Shown: positions 12,188 to 61,222 of the stretch, one piece after another | Layout: each line of letters begins with the position of its first letter | How positions within the stretch are numbered: the stretch's first letter is position 1 | From: Acidobacteriota bacterium | GTDB lineage: Bacteria > Acidobacteriota > Terriglobia > UBA7540 | Reading direction: 5' to 3' | DNA: 64,000 nucleotides | Assembly (NCBI GenBank): GCA_021838785.1 | Contig: JAKCCV010000007.1 | Location: forward strand, 1 to 64,000 | The notes under the pieces: model-generated | What the model was told of the DNA's origin: nothing | Databases searched by the model: none | Seen by the model: the letters and a program-made list of their open reading frames with translations, nothing else | Made by a program: the position numbers and the translations under genes

Positions 12188-13285
12188 TCATTCGCAAGTA
12201 AGGGCATCCACCGGATCGAGTCGGGCTGCCCGTAGGGCCGGGTAAAACGCCCCCAACAAACTCCCAGCTAAAGCCAGCAGGGCCGCCCACACGGCCCACG
12301 GGTACGTCAATTGCACGGTAATCGTCGGGAAAATCCGTCGAATCAACAACCATCCCGCGCCGGTGGTCGCGTAGCCGACGATGATGCCTGCGACGCTGAG
12401 AGCAGCCGCCTCTCGAACGATCAGTTGAAGGATATACGCCTTGGTAGCTCCAAGAGATTTCAAGATACCAATCTCCCGCGTGCGCTCGGCGACGGTTGTG
12501 TACATTGATAGGAAAATCACCAAAAATCCGACGATGACCGCGGTGGTAACCATCACCGTAATAAACTCGGTAAGGGATGAAGGACTGTTTGACGTCAGCA
12601 TGGACATGTATTGGCGCACCGCGAGGACACTGTCGCCCGGAAACTGCTTTTTGATCGCGTTGACCACCGCGTCGGTATAACGAGCGTGGGTACACTTAAT
12701 GAAAAAGAGCGAGGCCCGATCCGACTGGCGAGCAAGACGCTGCGCCGTCTTCAGGGGAATAAAAAGGCGCGACCCTTTGCCGTGCTCGACAATGCCGCAA
12801 ACACGGAACCTGTGATTCAACAAATCCAACCTCTCACCCAGGTGGACGTGGTCCTGCCGCGCGTAGTCGTTATCCACAAGAATGTCGAAAGGTCCTTTGA
12901 ACGGCCCCCCCGCAAGATAAACGAAACCTCCTGTGACGCGGTTCCAGCTTTGCATATCAATTCCCCAGATCAGCCTCGTGCCCAAATTGGTGAATCGGAA
13001 AAAGACAGGGGTTACTGCTTCCACATGGTTAAGCTTGGAAAATTCGGCGTCAAGGCTGATCGGCAGGGTCGAGCTCGTCAAACCCATGAACAAGGAGGCA
13101 TCCGGCGGCTCGACCATCACGTCGCCGCCTACGCCGCCAATCCGGTTCGCGGAGGCCCACAACATGCCGTGGGTGAGTCCCACCACCAGCATGATCATCG
13201 TAACTTCCAGGCCCACCGCAAGAACGCTAATGCCGGTTCGGATAGGGCGGCGCAATAAGTTCTGAAATATCATGCGGCCGACCAT
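12188..13285 (-). CDS. FtsX/MacB-type ABC transporter permease (orphan)
   Basis: An inner-membrane permease with one N-terminal helix, a periplasmic domain of about 200 residues and three C-terminal helices; the motif '[20 protein letters not shown]' and the ending 'ALRAARLDPVDAL' are the FtsX/MacB hallmark. It is a clear paralog of the permease at 60125-61222: both begin with a 'QN(I/L)LRRPIRT.ISVLAV' segment and share long identical stretches. I start it at 13285 (MVGRMIFQNLLRR) because it lines up with that paralog; ATG 13345 or the open frame to 13429 are alternatives with no better ribosome site. No ATPase gene adjoins it, so it may share one, perhaps that at 61284, or have lost its partner. 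Confidence 0.88.
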   Translation of the reverse strand: MVGRMIFQNLLRRPIRTGISVLAVGLEVTMIMLVVGLTHGMLWASANRIGGVGGDVMVEPPDASLFMGLTSSTLPISLDAEFSKLNHVEAVTPVFFRFTNLGTRLIWGIDMQSWNRVTGGFVYLAGGPFKGPFDILVDNDYARQDHVHLGERLDLLNHRFRVCGIVEHGKGSRLFIPLKTAQRLARQSDRASLFFIKCTHARYTDAVVNAIKKQFPGDSVLAVRQYMSMLTSNSPSSLTEFITVMVTTAVIVGFLVIFLSMYTTVAERTREIGILKSLGATKAYILQLIVREAAALSVAGIIVGYATTGAGWLLIRRIFPTITVQLTYPWAVWAALLALAGSLLGAFYPALRAARLDPVDALTCE

Positions 13286-13544
13286 TCGAGGCCGCGCGGA
13301 ATACTCCCTCGGAATGCCTTGGCTTGTGCCCTGCTCCTGTTTCATGAGACCATAACCCCGTTGGGGAGGAAACCTCACCCGGGCCTCGATCCGAGGAGGG
13401 AGGCCCGTGAGATCGCATGAGAGGTTCATCGCCGAGCAGGGAGAAACCCATCACCTTGTCCCCTGAGATGCTTCATTTCGGCCCGAGGAAGATGCCACGT
13501 TAAGACCTGCGCGTCGAACATGGTTCGCGCTCCTGAGGCTGGCC

Positions 13545-52090: not shown

Positions 52091-53398
52091 CTACAGGATT
52101 TCGCCCATCACTTTGCCGAAATTGATTTGCGTGCCGGACTGAAGGGTTAAGCTGAGTCCCGGTGGAACCATCTTCGGTTGATGATCGCGGGGAGGCGTGA
52201 CAGACCAAGGAATTTCCGAGAGATTCTTGAGACCCCAAACGTCGCCGCGTTCGGGATGACGGGACACGGCGGCCAGGGGCCGCGAGAAATCGTACAAACT
52301 ATCCGCGGTGAGGTGATGGGGGAAGAGTTCCGTATTGTGATTGAGCATCACCAGTTGACGAGGGAGCTGGAGACGTAACGGAAGCCGCAGCCGCTTATTG
52401 CACTGCCAGCAAATCCCACCCGCCGCCCGCGCCGGATCTGCAAAATTTTCGGCGCCACAATGGTGGCAGTAATAAATGGAATCCCGGAGCTGAATCATGA
52501 TGGCGCGCCACTCTCCCTCGCGCACGCGGCCATGGAGCGGATCGCGGATTCCCTCCGTGAAGGCGCGAGTGAATAGATCGCGCAACGGCTGGGGATAAAT
52601 GGGCCAAAGGAAGAACAGATTGTCGTGAGCTCCTTGCACCGGACGATTGGAGGCATCGTCAGGGTCAAAAACGAAGACAGGCTCGAATCCGTAAAGGCGA
52701 TTCATGGCGGGAAGGTCAAAGCTATGGATGGCCAGTTCCCTTTTGCCCTCGAGAGGATGGTGCATCATCAAGATATAAAAAAGAAGGACTGCCAGTGAAT
52801 AAAGGTCGGTTTGAATGCTCGGCGAGGCCGCGCCGCGCACAACTTCGGGAGCCATGAAGCGAGGTGTGCCGAGAATCCCAATCTCTCCCTCCCCGTCAAC
52901 CGTGACATTATCGTTGTCGGCGATTAACACTTCGCCGGTAGCAGGGTCAAAGAAAATGTTGCCGAAGGAGATGTCGCGGTAGCAAAGACCCTTGGAATGC
53001 AACTGGAGAAAACTATGAGCCAACTCGAAACCCAGGGTGGTCAGAACACGGAACGTCGGATCGAGGCGACGTTTCATGAGGTCGGCGACGCCCTTGTAGC
53101 GGTTCTCGCGCAGAGGCATCAGGTAACCGAGGCCGGGACGTGAAGGCGCGGAAACCAGCTCCAAGGGCCAAAGAAACCTGCTCGTCGGCGCGCCGCGTTT
53201 CACCAAGGTTTCCAGCACCCTGCGCTGGGCAGGGGTTGAAAACTGAGGGTAATACCATTTGAGGGCCGCCTGACGATCCGCCACGCGGACGCGATAGACG
53301 CCGCCTTGCCCACCTTCGCCCAACAGATCTTCGACTTGACAAGCTTGGCGCGAGCTTTCCGTCCATACCACTTGTCCGCGCGTCAGAAGAAGGCTCAT
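52091..53398 (-). CDS. Serine/threonine protein kinase with C-terminal zinc ribbon (TerY-P triad-like)
   Basis: A 435-residue kinase. Gly-rich loop GEGGQGGVYRV (27-37), Lys K47 (AALKWYY), catalytic loop Y140-R-D142-I-S-F-G-N147, the DFG position reads D161-N-D163 (IADNDNVTV), and APE is at 183-185. So the active-site residues are present but HRD is YRD and DFG is DND. A zinc ribbon (C311/C314 and C330/C333) follows, then about 100 residues ending in SLTLQSGTQINFGKVMGEIL, perhaps a degenerate FHA-like strand set. The vWA, PP2C and kinase combination marks the TerY-P group. The start overlaps the TPR gene by four bases. Confidence 0.88.
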   Translation of the reverse strand: MSLLLTRGQVVWTESSRQACQVEDLLGEGGQGGVYRVRVADRQAALKWYYPQFSTPAQRRVLETLVKRGAPTSRFLWPLELVSAPSRPGLGYLMPLRENRYKGVADLMKRRLDPTFRVLTTLGFELAHSFLQLHSKGLCYRDISFGNIFFDPATGEVLIADNDNVTVDGEGEIGILGTPRFMAPEVVRGAASPSIQTDLYSLAVLLFYILMMHHPLEGKRELAIHSFDLPAMNRLYGFEPVFVFDPDDASNRPVQGAHDNLFFLWPIYPQPLRDLFTRAFTEGIRDPLHGRVREGEWRAIMIQLRDSIYYCHHCGAENFADPARAAGGICWQCNKRLRLPLRLQLPRQLVMLNHNTELFPHHLTADSLYDFSRPLAAVSRHPERGDVWGLKNLSEIPWSVTPPRDHQPKMVPPGLSLTLQSGTQINFGKVMGEIL

Positions 53399-54531
53399 GG
53401 AGACAAGGCCGGCGAGGTTGATTCAAAAGAAGACGCTTCCCGGCGAAGAGCCTTCGCAAGCCCTGCATAAAGGCTTAGCAGAAGCGACAAGCCATATCCC
53501 ACTATGAGCACCCAAGCATACTTGCGAAGCTCAGCCTTTCGCTCTTCGACAAGCAAAAACCGTCGGAATGCGGCCGCACGGGCTTCATCTTGTGGGTTTC
53601 GAGCGGTTTGGGCGAGGCCAAAGGCCGCGCTCCAATCGCCCCAGGCGTAATTGAGATAGGCGGGCATTAACGGCCTGGAATGAAACAAGGCAGGCGAGCG
53701 CAGGCCCGCTTGCTGAGCGAGCTCGAGCGCACGCGCAAGCCCATGAAGTGCAACTCGTGCGCGATTCCATCGGCCGGCATTCAGTGAGGCGTTAGCTTTT
53801 TTCAAGTTGCGGTTGAATTCCTTCGTGACCGTTTCCATTTGAGTAAGGCGCGTCAGTTGGAACCGAACCTCCGGATCGCCGGGGCGGTATTCCAGACCCT
53901 CGCGAAAGTATTTTGCGGCAACCTCAAGGAAACCTCGATCGAGCGCGGCGCGACCCGCGGCCAAGGCCGCCGAATAACGGGCGGTAATCAGCGCTGCCTG
54001 TGCTTGCGGGTTACGGGGTGAAACTGCCAGAGCGCGCGCAAAACTCTCCGCCGCAGCGGAGTAGGCTCCAGCTTGCATCCAACGCTCCCCTTGCACCAGC
54101 AGAAGTTGCGTATTGGCTAAGTTACTCTCCCTCACAAGACCAGCCCGAGAGGCTATGGAAAGAGCTTGAGCGAAATCGGCCTGAGCACGAGCCCAGTGAT
54201 GATGGCCTGAGTTTGTAAGGCCGCTCTGATATGCCAGCTCGAACTTTGCAAACTGCAATGAACGCTGAGCCGTTGGGCTGGTAGGATCAGCGCGGGCAGC
54301 ACGTTCAAAGGAAATTATCGCACCGCGATAGTCGCGGTCGCTTAACCTTTGATGTCCTTCAAGCATTTCGCGCCGGAATTGTGCTCGGGCGCTCGCCGGT
54401 GTCCCCCTGGGCGACAAGGGAAATGAATAGCCGGGCGATGTTAAAAACCAGACTACCACGCCAAGCGCGATCGCCAGACGGCCATGCCACGCCACCCGTG
54501 AGCGACAGAAACGCTTCATGCGCGGGTTCAT
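53395..54531 (-). CDS. Membrane-anchored TPR-like protein of the kinase operon
   Basis: A 378-residue protein: an N-terminal hydrophobic segment (LAIALGVVVWFLTSPGYSF, signal or anchor), about six TPR-like helical repeats (for example YRGAIISFERAARADPTSP; AYSAAAESFARALAVSPRNP; FLEVAAKYFREGLEYRPGDP) and a C-terminal helix (AWVLIVGYGLSLLLSLYAGL). TPRs are protein-interaction scaffolds, so it could hold the kinase or its substrates at the membrane. Start ATG 54531 overlaps the upstream gene (ATGA) and the stop overlaps the kinase start. Not part of the described minimal TerY-P triad. Confidence 0.82.
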   Translation of the reverse strand: MNPRMKRFCRSRVAWHGRLAIALGVVVWFLTSPGYSFPLSPRGTPASARAQFRREMLEGHQRLSDRDYRGAIISFERAARADPTSPTAQRSLQFAKFELAYQSGLTNSGHHHWARAQADFAQALSIASRAGLVRESNLANTQLLLVQGERWMQAGAYSAAAESFARALAVSPRNPQAQAALITARYSAALAAGRAALDRGFLEVAAKYFREGLEYRPGDPEVRFQLTRLTQMETVTKEFNRNLKKANASLNAGRWNRARVALHGLARALELAQQAGLRSPALFHSRPLMPAYLNYAWGDWSAAFGLAQTARNPQDEARAAAFRRFLLVEERKAELRKYAWVLIVGYGLSLLLSLYAGLAKALRREASSFESTSPALSP

Positions 54532-55472
54532 CGTTGGCGGACCATTGAAGACGCGATTTTCCCTTGGACGGCCGTCATCAGGCCCACCCATTGATAAACA
54601 AAGATACCCACGATAACAGATTGCAGCAGGCGCCCAAGATTAAAGGCCAACTCGTGGTGGTATCCAATCAGGCGCAGCCTGCCATACCATTCACCGATCC
54701 ATAAGGCGGCCACGCCAACCGGCACCAGGGGTTGAATCAACAGAACCAACACTTCCACCAACAAGGCAGCCGGGGTTCTGAGGGGATCAAGCGCGGGGGA
54801 ATGCGGCGGGCCGCGACGCAGCAAATACCGGGCCGCAAGGAATTCTCCTGCCCAGGCAATTCCCAAGCCACCCGCCAACAGGCCCGTCTCCTTCAGCCAG
54901 TCAAGAAAAGAGGTCCAGCCTTGGTCGGAAGCTACGCGAGCCACTAGGCCCAGCGCCAGGGCTGAAGAAGCAATGCAGAGAGCACACAGGCCCAGCCACC
55001 CCCAGTCAACGGCCTTCAACAGAGCCAGAGTGGAAGCGTTGGGTTTCCTATCACCAGCCGGCAACGTCTCTTGACCGGCGAGGGTTACTGACCGAACGGA
55101 GGACGATTTGAGCTTGCCATGCGCGGGCGCGGCTCGAATAAGTTCCACCCAAGACTCTGCGGCCCAACGGCTGGCATGCTCGGCCAACCCTAAGTTGTCG
55201 CAAAGTTTTCGAGTGAGATTGGAGATAATCACTTCCTCTGGAAGAACGTCGAGTGACGCCAGAATATCCGGCACGACGCGCTCTTTGAGGGCAGCCATCA
55301 GCAGAAAAATTTCGCGCCGATGACCCACGCAGAGGTCACGGAGGAGCGCTTCGCAGCGTTGTGGCTGATCGCAGAGGTCGCGGCCGTAGAGTTCCAGAAT
55401 GTGACGTAATTGCTCTCGCGGGGCATTCTCGGCCTCAGTGCGAATCGGGTTTTCCACGCTGGGCGTAGCCAT
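54528..55472 (-). CDS. Multi-pass membrane protein with N-terminal helical domain
   Basis: A 314-residue protein. Residues about 18-110 form a helical domain (LRHILELYGRDLCDQPQRCE; ALLRDLCVGHRREIFLLMAA; LKERVVPDILASLDVLPEEV; LTRKLCDNLGLAEHASRWAA). I recall similar stretches at the N-terminus of cyanobacterial and Chloroflexi signalling proteins with WD40 or other domains, but do not know a name. Residues about 160-310 contain about four membrane helices. ATG 55472 follows the PP2C stop by a few bases; TTG 55481 is an alternative. Between PP2C and TPR genes, so probably a membrane anchor of the system. Confidence 0.75.
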   Translation of the reverse strand: MATPSVENPIRTEAENAPREQLRHILELYGRDLCDQPQRCEALLRDLCVGHRREIFLLMAALKERVVPDILASLDVLPEEVIISNLTRKLCDNLGLAEHASRWAAESWVELIRAAPAHGKLKSSSVRSVTLAGQETLPAGDRKPNASTLALLKAVDWGWLGLCALCIASSALALGLVARVASDQGWTSFLDWLKETGLLAGGLGIAWAGEFLAARYLLRRGPPHSPALDPLRTPAALLVEVLVLLIQPLVPVGVAALWIGEWYGRLRLIGYHHELAFNLGRLLQSVIVGIFVYQWVGLMTAVQGKIASSMVRQR

Positions 55473-55481
55473 AGGCGTCAA

Positions 55482-56381
55482 TTAGACGTTTTTCCCCACG
55501 GGCAGTTCCGAAGAAGTGTCCTGCCGCCAAAGGATGCCGACAGAAACATCATCGCCACTGCCCCTCTCGGTGGTTTCCGCCAGCCAAGCGTCAAGACGGT
55601 CGTTGACCCATGCGATGCCTTCCGAGCGAATCAGCTCCAGAAAATCGCGGCCCACATTCATAAACCCCTCTTCCTCGCGAAAAGAATTTGAATAGCCGTC
55701 GGTACAAAGCAGCAGCAATGCCGGGGAGCCATCGGCAACGGGTTCGACGGCCAGGCGCACTTCCTTCCAAGCCTCCGGCATACACAAAGACGTGGTTTCC
55801 ACTCCCATCAGACGGGCATCACGGGGCCAAGGTCGAGTAGTTTTGCCGCTCGGAGAGACCAACAAACAGTCACCATCGCCCAATTGAACCAAAAGCAAAT
55901 AGGCCGGCGTGGCGAGGGCTGCGAGGACAGTGGAACCATACGCCAAAACATTATCAGCTTCGAGGGCGCGTCGTGCCGCGAGGCCCACCTTTTCCGCCAC
56001 GTTTTGCAATTCTGAAGCTTCCAAGGGGGTTTCGTGCAGGTGGCTGACGACGCTCCCACGCCAACGCTCCACCAGCAGGCGGGGGATTAATCCTTGAGCC
56101 AGGGGTTGCAGATCTGGCCCCTCTTCGCGCGGGTGTTGAAGGTAAAAATCATGCAACACTCCGGTGGCGACCTTCACTGCCATCTCCGCTCCACGCTTAC
56201 TACGGAAGCAAATGGGGTTGCCGTGACCATCGGCCAACGCAAGCGTAATGGACGCCCCCGTGCCCTCGGTTGGAAACCAGCGAATGGCGTCTTGCAGAGG
56301 GATGGCGTTCCGCCGGTGTGACGCCCCACGCACCGCACGGCCAACGGTTTGCCAGGTCCCGTCCCGTCGGAGGCATCCCAT
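55482..56381 (-). CDS. PP2C-type protein phosphatase
   Basis: A 299-residue metal-dependent phosphatase. Motifs in order: D31 in AIPLQDAIRW, LALADGHGNP (D51-G-H-G), YGSTVLAALATPAYLLLVQL, LGDGDCLLVSPSGK, LLLLCTDGYSNSF (D228) and GSGDDVSVGILW (D277-D278), the full metal-binding Asp set. It should remove phosphate from Ser/Thr residues placed by the downstream kinase. The gene starts at ATG 56381, three bases after the vWA stop. Confidence 0.9.
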   Translation of the reverse strand: MGCLRRDGTWQTVGRAVRGASHRRNAIPLQDAIRWFPTEGTGASITLALADGHGNPICFRSKRGAEMAVKVATGVLHDFYLQHPREEGPDLQPLAQGLIPRLLVERWRGSVVSHLHETPLEASELQNVAEKVGLAARRALEADNVLAYGSTVLAALATPAYLLLVQLGDGDCLLVSPSGKTTRPWPRDARLMGVETTSLCMPEAWKEVRLAVEPVADGSPALLLLCTDGYSNSFREEEGFMNVGRDFLELIRSEGIAWVNDRLDAWLAETTERGSGDDVSVGILWRQDTSSELPVGKNV

Positions 56382-56384
56382 GGC

Positions 56385-57086
56385 CTACCAGACATCCTCG
56401 GGGGGCGCTGAAGCCATCGGCGGAGGGGCGGGAACTTGGACGTTGCTTCCGCCTCCCGCCATTACCTGGCTTTGACTCGCCGGAGAGGAAGCAGCCTTGA
56501 GCACCGCCGTGGAGGCCCACTTGATGTAATTCACCAGCGCTTCCGAATTATTGGCTTGCAAAACAGGAATTTCCGGATTGTTAATGAACGCTTTCAAGGG
56601 TTCATGGTCGGCATCCTCACCGATGGCGATCGCGATGCGGACCGCTCGGCGTCCCCAAGGGATGTTCAGCAGCTCGGCCAGCGAGCCCGAAAAGTCGTCG
56701 GTGGGCTGGCCATCGGATATCAAGACCAAGACGGGCGGCAGAGCCCGCTCGCTCATGGGAGGAATTTTTAGCTGCTCGGCCACCACTTGCATGGCCCGGC
56801 CCATATCCGTGACACCACCGGCTTGAAGGTCCATCCACTTGAAATCCGCGATGGGAGTGGGTTGGGCAACATGCCACTGAGCACCATCCGAAAATTTCAC
56901 GGCGCGAACGAAGACTTGAGCGTGGGGATTCTCATCCGCGACGCGGAGCATGTGGGGGATGGCTTCTCGAATGGCGTTGTTCAGAGATTGGATCTTGCCG
57001 TCGCTCTGCATCGAGCCCGAACAATCGCAGATCCAGATAAAATGGAGCGGGCGCGAAGCTAGTTCGCCCCCCGGCCGCCTGATCAT
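56385..57086 (-). CDS. TerY-like von Willebrand factor A domain protein
   Basis: A 233-residue soluble vWA protein. The metal-ion-dependent adhesion site is complete: D21-C-S23-G-S25 (WICDCSGSMQS), T93 (AGGVTDMGRAMQV) and D125 (VLISDGQPTDD). The C-terminal part IPVLQANNSEALVNYIKWAS resembles the end of TerY. Pro-rich tail (VPAPPPMASAPPEDVW). Start ATG 57086 has GGAGGGAG nine bases upstream. First gene of the operon; vWA domains mediate metal-dependent protein contacts, here probably with the kinase or phosphatase. Confidence 0.88.
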   Translation of the reverse strand: MIRRPGGELASRPLHFIWICDCSGSMQSDGKIQSLNNAIREAIPHMLRVADENPHAQVFVRAVKFSDGAQWHVAQPTPIADFKWMDLQAGGVTDMGRAMQVVAEQLKIPPMSERALPPVLVLISDGQPTDDFSGSLAELLNIPWGRRAVRIAIAIGEDADHEPLKAFINNPEIPVLQANNSEALVNYIKWASTAVLKAASSPASQSQVMAGGGSNVQVPAPPPMASAPPEDVW

Positions 57087-57413: not shown

Positions 57414-58763
57414 TTAACGGCCGCGACCCGTCGGTCGGCGGCGAATGGGTGGCCGCGCTTTTTCTTTCTCCTGATTGGCCTTGGCCCGTTCTTCCGCCAT
57501 TTTCAGGACGGCGTCATTGATTTTGGCGCCGGCAACAACCAAGTAGAAGTGGGGAGAAGTTTCATAGGCCGATAGCGTGCCTTGAAATTGCACCGGATCG
57601 CCCGGCTGGAGAAGCTTCGCAGCTGGCTGGGCGGAGTCTTGAAGCTGAATGTTATAGGCACCCGTGCTGGCCTTCGCGCCTGGGGTGATATTCACATTCA
57701 CCAGCGTCGTTCCCGGATCGGGGCCGGGAGCAACGCTATCCACCGTACCCACCAGGCCAATGGGCTGGCCTTGGAGTTGCTTCCAATTCTGTCGCGCCGT
57801 ATCACCGCCAACAATCAGCGCGTCCTCAAGCTGATAGAAAGCATCCAGATTCTTGTTGCCCGTCGGCTTGTGCTTGGGGGGCGTGGGGATGGTGAAGCCG
57901 GAAGGTGGAGTGGCGGAAGACGCGGCTTCGGCCAACACCGCTTTCTCGCCCTGGTTCGAGCCTCGCCGATATTCGTAATCCTGACTGTAAATTTTCTCCA
58001 AATCGGCCGCGTTGGGACTGTTGGCTTTCTTGGCCAGGGCCGCCGCGCGTGCCAGGTACCAGATGCCGTCATTATAATCGGGCGGATTCGAGTTCAGGTA
58101 TGCTTGCCCGAGCATAGAGAGCGTCAGCGGGTCGTTGGGTCGGTCCTGCATCGCGGCTTGGAGCGCTGGTAGCGCGTCGGCATAGTCCTTTTTTTGCAAG
58201 TTGGCAAAGCCAATCGCGGTGTTAAAGATCGCCCGCTTGGGCTTGACATAAGCTTCAAACTGCGCTTCCGTCACACCCTTCGGCTTCTGGAAGTTCTGCA
58301 GAACCTGGAGTCCGTGCTGAGCTTCCGCCAAGCCCCGACTTAACTGTGTCGCAGCATCGGGGTCACTCGGCTTATAGGTGTATGGAAAGGCAAAGCTCAA
58401 ATACGCCAGCGCGTCCAGCTCGTTGGGATTAAGGGCCAGAACACGCTTGGCCGCTGCAATCGCCTTGGCGCTGTTGTTGAGTTGCTCATAGGTTTGCATC
58501 TCGGCGACGTAGGCGTTCACCTTGAAATCCGAGTTGGGGAACTTCTGAAGGAAGGCTTGGATTAGCGGAAGCCTCTTTTGAGGGTCGGTCGCTTTCACAA
58601 ACGCTTCAAAGGCGTCGTACTCAGCTCGACTCTTCCATTGCGGCTGCTTGGTGGTTGCAGCCGCCTGGGGCGCGCCAGCCGCCATGACGTACGCCGGTGT
58701 CCACGGCATCGTCACGACGGCGGCGAGAATTGCAAGCATCAAAGGCACACAGATTTTCTTCAT
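57414..58763 (-). CDS. Secreted TPR protein with beta-rich C-terminal domain
   Basis: A 449-residue protein. Signal peptide about 1-28 (LMLAILAAVVTMPWTPAYVM), TPR-like repeats between about 45 and 260 (AKAIAAAKRVLALNPNELDA; ADALPALQAAMQDRPNDPLT), a Pro-rich linker, then about 120 residues (about 312-420) with strands such as PIGLVGTVDSVAPGPDPGTT and GDPVQFQGTLSAYETSPHFY, resembling an OB-fold-like or tRNA-binding-type barrel. The tail is Lys/Arg rich. It is probably periplasmic; the function is unknown. ATG 58763. Confidence 0.75.
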   Translation of the reverse strand: MKKICVPLMLAILAAVVTMPWTPAYVMAAGAPQAAATTKQPQWKSRAEYDAFEAFVKATDPQKRLPLIQAFLQKFPNSDFKVNAYVAEMQTYEQLNNSAKAIAAAKRVLALNPNELDALAYLSFAFPYTYKPSDPDAATQLSRGLAEAQHGLQVLQNFQKPKGVTEAQFEAYVKPKRAIFNTAIGFANLQKKDYADALPALQAAMQDRPNDPLTLSMLGQAYLNSNPPDYNDGIWYLARAAALAKKANSPNAADLEKIYSQDYEYRRGSNQGEKAVLAEAASSATPPSGFTIPTPPKHKPTGNKNLDAFYQLEDALIVGGDTARQNWKQLQGQPIGLVGTVDSVAPGPDPGTTLVNVNITPGAKASTGAYNIQLQDSAQPAAKLLQPGDPVQFQGTLSAYETSPHFYLVVAGAKINDAVLKMAEERAKANQEKEKARPPIRRRPTGRGR

Positions 58764-59288: not shown

Positions 59289-60128
59289 TTGGCGCTGCTC
59301 ACAAGCGGTTGCGCCGTGCGGCAGGTGAGCCGCCTCCCATCTCCCCCCGTGCCTGGGACCCTCCTGAAGGCATCCGTCAGCGATCTGGTCAAAGATGTTA
59401 ACCAGTGGAGCGCCAAGATTGAAACGCTTCAGGCTGTCGTTCAGTTTCAAGCCACCGCGCTGTTGACGCAGGAGGGACTCGAGAAACAGTATCACCAAAT
59501 TCGCGCGTATATTTTGCTAAAGAAACCGTCACTCATCCGTATTCAAGGCGAAGCGCCGGTGGTAGGGACAGAAATTTTCGACATGACTTCCAACGGGAGC
59601 GAGTTTCGACTTTCCATTCCTCCCAAAAACCAGTTCATCACCGGGGCGGACAATTATCACGCGACCAAGTCCGGGGGACTCGAGAATTTACGACCGCGCC
59701 ATATTCTTGAAGCGCTGCTGGTTGCTCCGCTCGGTCCAACTGACAATTATTTTGTCGAGGAGACGAATCGCAACGGCCAAGATTATTATGTTTTAACGGT
59801 TGTCAAACCGGCCGAGAACCACACGCTGAAGCTAGTACGCAAGATTTGGTTTGATCGGACGGACCTGCGGGTGAAAAGAAGCGAGATTTTCGGCGCTGAC
59901 GGAAAGCTGGAGGAAGCCGTGAACTATTCGGGCTACGGCGACTTCCAAGGAATCTCTTATCCTTCGCACATCAAGCTCTCAAGGCCGGTGGAAGGCTACG
60001 CCTTGGGCATCCAGTTTGAAAGGGCGACGTTCAATGAAGAGATTGGGCCGGAGAAATTCGTGTTACCTCGGCCTCCACACGCCAAGCTCATCCGCCTTGG
60101 CCAGAGCAGCGGAGGGAACAGCCAGTGA
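59289..60128 (+). CDS. LolB/DUF4292-like outer-membrane lipoprotein (start uncertain)
   Basis: About 279 residues from TTG 59289 (LALLTSGCAVRQ). The lipobox LLTSGC lies only eight residues from that TTG, so the true signal peptide begins earlier: the codons 59247-59288 in frame spell a basic stretch and a hydrophobic core (RRTHRAKQRWLAWT), but contain no ATG, GTG or TTG. The mature protein has the half-barrel pattern of LolA/LolB/DUF4292 (YHQIRAYILLKKPSLIRIQG; SNGSEFRLSIPPKNQFITGA; KIWFDRTDLRVKRSEIFGAD; GDFQGISYPSHIKLSRPVEG). Such proteins bind lipid or lipoproteins. It overlaps the permease gene by four bases (GTGA). Confidence 0.78.
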   Translation: MALLTSGCAVRQVSRLPSPPVPGTLLKASVSDLVKDVNQWSAKIETLQAVVQFQATALLTQEGLEKQYHQIRAYILLKKPSLIRIQGEAPVVGTEIFDMTSNGSEFRLSIPPKNQFITGADNYHATKSGGLENLRPRHILEALLVAPLGPTDNYFVEETNRNGQDYYVLTVVKPAENHTLKLVRKIWFDRTDLRVKRSEIFGADGKLEEAVNYSGYGDFQGISYPSHIKLSRPVEGYALGIQFERATFNEEIGPEKFVLPRPPHAKLIRLGQSSGGNSQ

Positions 60129-61222
60129 TTAGCCGGCTGATCACTCAAAACATCCTGCGCCGTCCGATTCGAACGGTGATTAGCGTCTTGGCGGTGGCGA
60201 TTGAAGTGGGAATGGTGATGCTGGTGGTGGGGCTGACGCATGGCATGCTGCACGATTCTGCGCAGCGGATTGGCGGCCTGGGGGCGGATGTGATGGTCCA
60301 GGCTCCTCACGCCTCGATGTTTCTGGGCATGACGAGCGCGCCCATGCCCATCAAACTCGGAGATTATCTGGCAAAACTCGACCATGTTCAGGCGGTCACA
60401 CCCGTGCTCTTCCAGTTCGATTCCTCTGGAGTTTCCCTCATATGGGGCATTGATATGAAAAGCTGGGACCGAGTGACGGGAGGGTTCGCGTACCTTCAAG
60501 GAGGACCTTTCAGCGGGCCGTACGATCTGTTGGTGGATAACTGGTATGCCCGCCAAAATCACGTCCGCGTAGGCCAAACCGTTAAGCTACTCAACCACCG
60601 CTTCACCGTCTCGGGCATCGTCGAGCATGGCAAAGGCTCACGGCTGTTTATCCCTCTCGAAACCGCGGAGAGCTTGGCAGAGCAGCAGAATCGAGCCTCC
60701 ATTTTTTTCATCAAGTGCACGAATCCCGGCTATACCGACCACGTCATTGCTTCCATCAAAAAGTTGCTGCCGAATTACACTGTGCTCTCGGTCCAGGAAT
60801 ACATGTCGCTATTAACCTCCAACGATCTGCCGGCGTTGACCGACTTTATTACGGTGCTGGTGGCGATCGCGGTGACTATCGGCTTTTTGGTAATTTTTCT
60901 CTCGATGTACACTACCATCGCCGAGCGGACGCGGGAGATTGGTATTTTGAAATCGCTGGGAGCCACCAAGGGGTATATCATTGACCTGATTCTCCGGGAG
61001 GCAGGCGTTTTATGCTTGGCCGGTATCCTTGTGGGCTATGTGGGAACATGGGCAGGGCGGGAGCTGATTTACAGAACGTTCCCGACGGTGACCGTCGAGT
61101 TGACGGTGCGATGGGCACTATGGGCAGCCTTGCTGGCCCTGGGTGGCACGCTGATCGGCGCGTTTTACCCTGCGTTGCGGGCCGCTCAGCTCGATCCCGT
61201 GGATGCCCTCGCCTACGAATAG
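60125..61222 (+). CDS. FtsX/MacB-type ABC transporter permease
   Basis: A 365-residue permease with one N-terminal helix ([20 protein letters not shown]), a periplasmic domain and three C-terminal helices; [20 protein letters not shown] and [16 protein letters not shown] are the family hallmark. GTG 60125 overlaps the LolB-like stop. It lies directly upstream of the ATPase gene (61284). Its paralog is at 12188-13285. Neighbouring lipoprotein carriers suggest it moves lipids or lipoproteins out of the inner membrane, as LolCDE or MacB-like exporters do. Confidence 0.9.

What the first reader, a model, noticed from the sequence alone, without database searches (positions are those of the whole stretch)
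52091..57086. Expanded TerY-P-type phosphosignalling operon
Seen: five minus-strand genes, ordered vWA, PP2C, membrane protein, TPR protein and kinase, overlap or touch (3-base gap, short gap, ATGA, ATGA). The MIDAS residues of the vWA, all PP2C Asp residues and the kinase catalytic residues are present. Known: a vWA-PP2C-kinase triad (TerY-P) has been proposed as a stress or phage-defence phosphorylation module. Inference: two membrane proteins tether the triad here, giving an envelope-located version without Ter genes nearby. The order and the two extra membrane components are what make it worth a look.
Basis: partly seen in the sequence, partly recalled or inferred. Interest (0 to 1): 0.8.

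Follow-up and report, generated by a model that had tools for sequence, protein, structure and literature searches.

The report
Membrane-anchored TerY-P switch, T6SS-linked relative
Five co-transcribed genes in an Acidobacteriota genome encode a kinase, a phosphatase and a metal-binding partner plus two membrane proteins, and because a relative carries four of them inside a type VI secretion (toxin-injection) gene cluster, the set is best read as an envelope-mounted on/off switch, possibly for that weapon.

Summary
The five minus-strand genes are real, tightly packed and under purifying selection. vWA, PP2C and kinase form a TerY-P-type triad: MIDAS, PP2C Asp residues, a kinase with DND in place of DFG, and a four-Cys zinc ribbon plus beta-rich tail, as in Klebsiella ter kinases. 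The "membrane protein" is more than a tether: it joins a new ~100-residue helical domain (no Pfam match) to transmembrane helices. That domain recurs in five tandem genes behind the same triad on a Methylomonas plasmid (fused to Sel1, Tim44, Clp_N, ClpX zinc finger and an unidentified tail) and next to the kinase in two other Acidobacteriota families. The TPR gene was found only in this genus. The key locus is G654 (same class, another family): vWA, PP2C, adaptor-TM and kinase run into tssG and vgrG inside a T6SS cluster. The window's genome has a collinear T6SS on another contig; a congener without the kinase and a family member with only a kinase relic lack its sheath gene. Best reading: a membrane-docked TerY-P switch, probably T6SS-controlling, working like the P. 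aeruginosa threonine-phosphorylation pathway but not a member of it. Main rival: stand-alone phage defence.

The parts
56385..57086 (-). TerY-like stand-alone vWA protein (233 aa), intact MIDAS, Pro-rich tail ending EDVW
   Evidence: Pfam VWA E 7e-8; PADLOC TerY E 2.7e-5; 68% id to Methylomonas, 75% to G654, 30% to Klebsiella TerY
56388..56396 (-). C-terminal acidic-Trp tail (DVW) of the vWA; DDW/DEVW/QDWEF in relatives
   Evidence: alignment of 11 TerY-P vWA proteins; DEVW in G654
55482..56381 (-). PP2C-family Ser/Thr phosphatase (299 aa), metal-site Asp residues present
   Evidence: Pfam PP2C_2 E 1.6e-34; alignment; 46% id to G654, 32% to Methylomonas
54528..55481 (-). Adaptor-TM protein (317 aa, TTG start; alternative ATG at 55472): N-terminal helical domain plus transmembrane helices
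   Evidence: 39% id over nearly the full length in G654
55125..55421 (-). New adaptor domain (residues 21-119), shared with five Methylomonas proteins and with G302 and G654
   Evidence: BLASTP 41% over 91 aa, E 1e-19; profile E 4e-6 to G302 and 1e-26 to G654; no Pfam or PHROG match
53395..54531 (-). TPR protein (378 aa from ATG 54531): N-terminal hydrophobic segment, TPRs, C-terminal TM (about 53455-53511) and short Ser/Thr-rich tail
   Evidence: Pfam TPR_2 E 3e-8; TM scan; 44.5% id to G022, no homologue in G654, G302 or Methylomonas loci
52091..53398 (-). TerY-P-type Ser/Thr kinase (435 aa), DND in place of DFG, no TM
   Evidence: Pfam Pkinase E 4e-15; alignment of nine TerY-P kinases; model pLDDT 80.8, kinase fold Z 21.9, rmsd 2.7 over 254 residues to PknA
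52400..52468 (-). Zinc ribbon C311-C314...C330-C333 of the kinase
   Evidence: all four Cys invariant in nine TerY-P kinases including Klebsiella ter
52097..52375 (-). C-terminal beta-rich domain of the kinase (residues 342-434)
   Evidence: model strands; conserved in relatives; no Pfam or convincing PDB profile match

Best explanation
A TerY-P-type phosphorylation switch docked at the inner membrane that most likely gates a type VI secretion system. Shown: the vWA/PP2C/kinase triad, the adaptor-TM protein, their conservation, and the T6SS linkage in one relative. Inferred: the adaptor domain holds one of the triad proteins at the membrane through its TM part; the vWA binds a peptide or metal-bridged partner and scaffolds kinase and phosphatase; in this genus the TPR protein, mostly periplasmic with a short cytosolic Ser/Thr tail, adds envelope sensing or is a substrate; the kinase then phosphorylates a T6SS component and PP2C resets it, working like PpkA/PppA in P. 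aeruginosa.
For: G654 (same class, other family): vWA, PP2C, adaptor-TM and kinase run co-directionally into TssG (Pfam E 1.5e-90) and VgrG, with tssK, tssM, tssA, tssB, tssC and tssF next door. The window's genome has a T6SS with the same order tssK-tssM-tssA-tssB-tssC (tssL between tssK and tssM) and a tssF 52% identical; the own-genome kinase search found no related kinase on that contig. VipB is present in all three near-complete class genomes with the kinase (G000, G022, G654) against 94 of 317 overall, chance about 0.026 ignoring kinship (my arithmetic). G023 lacks both kinase and VipB; G033 has only a decayed kinase relic and no VipB. Kinase plus PP2C control of T6SS firing after envelope injury is established for P. 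aeruginosa (PMC12133291).
Against: In the window's genome the module and the T6SS lie on different contigs; in G022 the module sits between amt and gap-pgk. G302 (95% complete) has kinase and adaptor-TM but no VipB. Relatives in Bacteroidota-type contigs lie beside BREX and restriction genes. Unlike PpkA the kinase has no TM segment, and no FHA substrate was identified. The VipB co-occurrence is weak: two of the three genomes share a genus and VipB is common in the family (17 of 39 genomes). The physical linkage rests on one locus.
Confidence: 0.42

Rival explanations
1. Stand-alone anti-phage system: the triad senses infection and, through the adaptor-TM protein, damages or depolarises the membrane (abortive infection), the TM domain being the effector.
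For: A TerY-P system protects against T7-like phages (PMC7699616). The same kinase subfamily lies directly downstream of BREX pglX-pglZ-brxL (L026), downstream of a 1648-aa restriction-methylase (L025) and at the end of a phage-like contig with portal and terminase genes (L024). The module is patchy and sits at different loci in the genus. The adaptor domain is fused to diverse partners in Methylomonas, the pattern of effector coupling.
Against: No defence genes recognised around the window's locus (ORFs read by eye, not profiled); the Acidobacteriota locus with informative neighbours is in a T6SS cluster; the TM part is not a known effector.
Confidence: 0.32
2. General envelope-stress phosphosignalling: the periplasmic TPR protein senses envelope damage and the triad sets the phosphorylation of ordinary host proteins, independent of T6SS or phage.
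For: TPR protein with N-terminal hydrophobic segment and C-terminal TM; all five genes kept and relocated together in the genus.
Against: TPR gene absent from the G654, G302 and Methylomonas loci; patchy distribution, 4 of 399 class genomes, is unusual for housekeeping signalling.
Confidence: 0.18
3. Chance neighbours: a TerY-P triad with unrelated membrane-protein passengers.
For: The TPR gene is lineage-specific and evolves fast.
Against: Adaptor-TM found beside the kinase in three families of two classes, and five adaptor genes behind the triad in Methylomonas.
Confidence: 0.05

Closest known systems
TerY-P triad (TerY vWA, PP2C, kinase with C-terminal zinc ribbon; Anantharaman 2012 as described in PMC11090510)
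   Same: all three components adjacent, MIDAS intact, kinase with zinc ribbon, DxD in place of DFG
   Different: no TerD in the genome, no DNA-processing partners at the locus; adds an adaptor-TM protein and a TPR protein; T6SS linkage in a relative; matches curated TerY-P profiles only weakly
T6SS threonine phosphorylation pathway (PpkA, PppA, Fha1, TagQRST; PMC12133291)
   Same: Ser/Thr kinase plus PP2C plus envelope components, next to T6SS genes in G654
   Different: kinase has no TM and carries a zinc ribbon; vWA is a separate protein; no Fha or Tag homologue identified
Effector-associated domains (EADs) of MoxR-vWA conflict systems (PMC7159879, PMC8195603)
   Same: small helical domain with variable fusion partners encoded beside a vWA-containing core
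   Different: no Pfam match; no copy fused to a core component and only one copy in the window's genome, so homotypic pairing is not shown
Kinase-zinc ribbon-beta domain / PP2C / vWA theme in actinobacterial GAP1-N2 systems (PMC7159879)
   Same: same three components with a beta-rich kinase tail
   Different: no GTPase or GAP1 gene noticed here; different phylum

Membership tests
TerY-P triad | TerY-like vWA with MIDAS | tested here: met
   PADLOC TerY E 2.7e-5; 30% id, 68 bits to Klebsiella TerY; MIDAS aligned
TerY-P triad | adjacent PP2C phosphatase | tested here: met
   PP2C_2 E 1.6e-34; similar to Prevotella and viral-contig TerY-P PP2C, but not significantly to Klebsiella PP2C
TerY-P triad | Ser/Thr kinase fused C-terminally to a zinc ribbon | tested here: met
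   four Cys invariant in nine kinases; 96 bits to the Klebsiella ter kinase versus 52 to the best other kinase of the own genome
TerY-P triad | recognition of kinase and PP2C by curated defence profiles | tested here: not met
   no TerY-P kinase or PP2C model hit in PADLOC; this bears on the database name, not on the domain definition
TerY-P triad | association with ter genes (common, not obligatory) | tested here: not met
   no TerD in the genome
T6SS threonine phosphorylation pathway | kinase and PP2C encoded with T6SS genes | tested here: inconclusive
   met in G654, not in the window, where the T6SS is on another contig
T6SS threonine phosphorylation pathway | membrane-bound kinase (PpkA) | tested here: not met
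   no TM segment in the kinase
T6SS threonine phosphorylation pathway | FHA-domain substrate and TagQRST sensors | not tested
   own genome not searched for these
Effector-associated domain (EAD) | same domain on a core component and on effectors | tested here: not met
   single copy in own genome; five copies in Methylomonas, none on the triad proteins

The most novel reading that the evidence does not exclude
A recurrent family of TerY-P switches that recruits interchangeable partners through a new adaptor domain, with T6SS firing, membrane proteins or Clp-type protease parts as alternative outputs: one phosphorylation core reused for phage defence and for weapon control.
Probability: 0.25. 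Interest if true: 0.75.

Novelty: new variant of a known kind. Interest (0 to 1): 0.55.

Why it matters
TerY-P triads are widespread but their outputs are unknown. A conserved adaptor domain fused to different partners, and a TerY-P triad co-directional with tssG and vgrG, give two concrete, testable outputs and would connect TerY-P defence modules to phosphorylation control of T6SS.

Tried and rejected
FHA identity of the kinase tail: suggested by eye, but no Pfam or convincing PDB profile match, so not claimed. Homology of the Acidobacteriota/Methylomonas adaptor with the helical N-terminal domain of Bacteroidota TerY-P neighbours (FGE, FtsK and unknown fusions): hhalign E 0.016 with 3% probability; a profile of the latter ranks the Methylomonas proteins, apart from one antisense ORF, first among non-members at E 0.05-0.28; suggestive only. 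Structure of the adaptor-TM protein: two-sequence alignment, pLDDT 41, only secondary structure usable. Searches for the adaptor domain in viral contigs, phages and other plasmids found nothing beyond Methylomonas. The PDB alignment list covers the kinase domain only; other parts were barely tested. The promoter and terminator scan gave no more than chance.

Full report
OBSERVATION. The five genes lie on the minus strand at 57086-52091 with the spacing described. The same five, in the same order, occur in two congeners: L005/G024 at the same site (94% DNA identity over 8.3 kb) and G022 (L016) between amt and gap-pgk. Outside the operon the G022 contig shares nothing detectable with the window, and the gap locus of the window's genome holds no module. 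So the five genes travelled as a unit. Ka/Ks is 0.02-0.33 against L005 and 0.03-0.24 against G022; synonymous sites are saturated in the second comparison. vWA (88% identity) and kinase (77%) change least, the TPR protein (44.5%) most.

THE TRIAD. The vWA has an intact MIDAS and matches VWA and PADLOC TerY. The PP2C matches PP2C_2 at 1.6e-34 with the metal-site Asp residues kept. The kinase has the invariant Lys of its subfamily, catalytic Asp and Asn, DND in place of DFG, a four-Cys zinc ribbon and a beta-rich tail; D142, N147, D161, D163 and the four Cys are invariant in nine TerY-P kinases including that of the Klebsiella ter region. Its predicted structure is a kinase (pLDDT 80.8; Z 21.9 to PknA). 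This meets the TerY-P definition given in PMC11090510. Relatives with the same triad: Methylomonas plasmid (kinase 49%, vWA 68%), Prevotella plasmid, and viral-collection contigs. A short acidic-Trp C-terminus of the vWA (DVW, DDW, DEVW) is shared by several of them and may be a docking tail (inference).

THE ADAPTOR-TM PROTEIN. Residues 21-119 form a helical domain without a Pfam or PHROG match. It is 41% identical over 91 residues to the first of five tandem Methylomonas genes behind the same kinase-vWA-PP2C; those five are fused to Sel1 repeats, a Tim44-like domain, Clp_N, the ClpX zinc finger and, in one, an unidentified tail. A profile finds it next to the kinase in G302 (other class; E 4e-6) and in G654 (other family; E 1e-26), in both together with TM segments (TM scan for G302; for G654 by alignment to the window protein over nearly its full length). 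It occurs once in the window's genome and in no other of 247 sampled phylum genomes. The domain therefore tracks this kinase subfamily.

THE TPR PROTEIN. It has an N-terminal hydrophobic segment, TPRs, a C-terminal TM and a Ser/Thr-rich tail. No counterpart exists in the G654, G302 or Methylomonas loci. It looks like a genus-level addition.

SURROUNDINGS AND DISTRIBUTION. The kinase subfamily is rare: 3 of 4 genomes of the genus, G654 and G302. G033 of the same family keeps only a frameshifted relic of the kinase C-terminus. In G654 the order vWA, PP2C, adaptor-TM, kinase, tssG, vgrG runs on one strand, beside tssK, tssM, tssA, tssB, tssC and tssF. The kinase is separated from the adaptor-TM gene by about 0.5 kb there. 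The window's genome has a collinear T6SS on contig C1: tssK, tssL (DotU), tssM, tssA, tssB, tssC, hcp, tssF, with 35-52% identity to G654 in the four proteins compared. VipB is present in G000, G022 and G654, absent in G023 (no kinase) and G033 (relic), absent in G302 despite the kinase, and undecidable in G024 (57% complete). The background is 94 of 317 near-complete class genomes. On the other side, Bacteroidota-type relatives lie beside BREX or restriction genes, and one kinase lies at the end of a phage contig.

HOW IT PROBABLY WORKS. Shown: the components, their conservation and the linkages. Inferred: the adaptor domain docks the triad at the inner membrane through its TM part; the kinase, held off by PP2C, is activated by an envelope cue and phosphorylates a target. 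The G654 linkage and the presence/absence pattern make a T6SS component the most likely target, as in the threonine phosphorylation pathway that fires the P. aeruginosa H1-T6SS after envelope injury (PMC12133291). It is not a member of that pathway by the features tested: the kinase has no TM and the vWA is separate. Stand-alone phage defence is the main rival (TerY-P acts against T7-like phages, PMC7699616).

CONCLUSION. A real and conserved operon; a new variant of TerY-P with a new adaptor domain and a T6SS-linked example in this survey. I found no description of this combination in the papers searched, but only open-licence papers were searchable.

Noticed in passing
L011:12894-17430: Methylomonas sp. 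AM2-LC plasmid CP157007.1 carries five tandem genes sharing the adaptor domain, fused to Sel1, Tim44-like, Clp_N, ClpX zinc finger and an unidentified tail, behind kinase-vWA-PP2C.
   Followed up: partly
L033:6433-13930: G654: vWA, PP2C, adaptor-TM, kinase, tssG, vgrG on one strand inside a T6SS cluster.
   Followed up: yes
L026:1-9206: Kinase subfamily directly downstream of BREX pglX-pglZ-brxL in a viral-collection contig, followed by several proteins sharing a second helical N-terminal domain (one fused to FGE-sulfatase).
   Followed up: partly
L024:1-6300: TerY-P-type kinase (45% id) at the end of a phage-like contig next to an HTH repressor, with sigma-70 region 4, terminase and portal genes downstream.
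   Followed up: partly
L018:10640-11150: Decayed, frameshifted relic of the kinase zinc ribbon and tail in G033, a family member without VipB.
   Followed up: yes
L028:7992-9251: A kinase of this subfamily that lacks the zinc-ribbon cysteines but keeps the C-terminal region, in a locus with AAA-type ATPases.
   Followed up: no
window 57414-58763: TPR-containing exported protein just upstream of the operon; a similar gene lies about 5 kb from the kinase relic in G033, so the operon may once have been there too.
   Followed up: partly
window 12188-13429 and 60125-61222: Two similar ABC-type permease genes (MacB-like by eye) in the same window.
   Followed up: no
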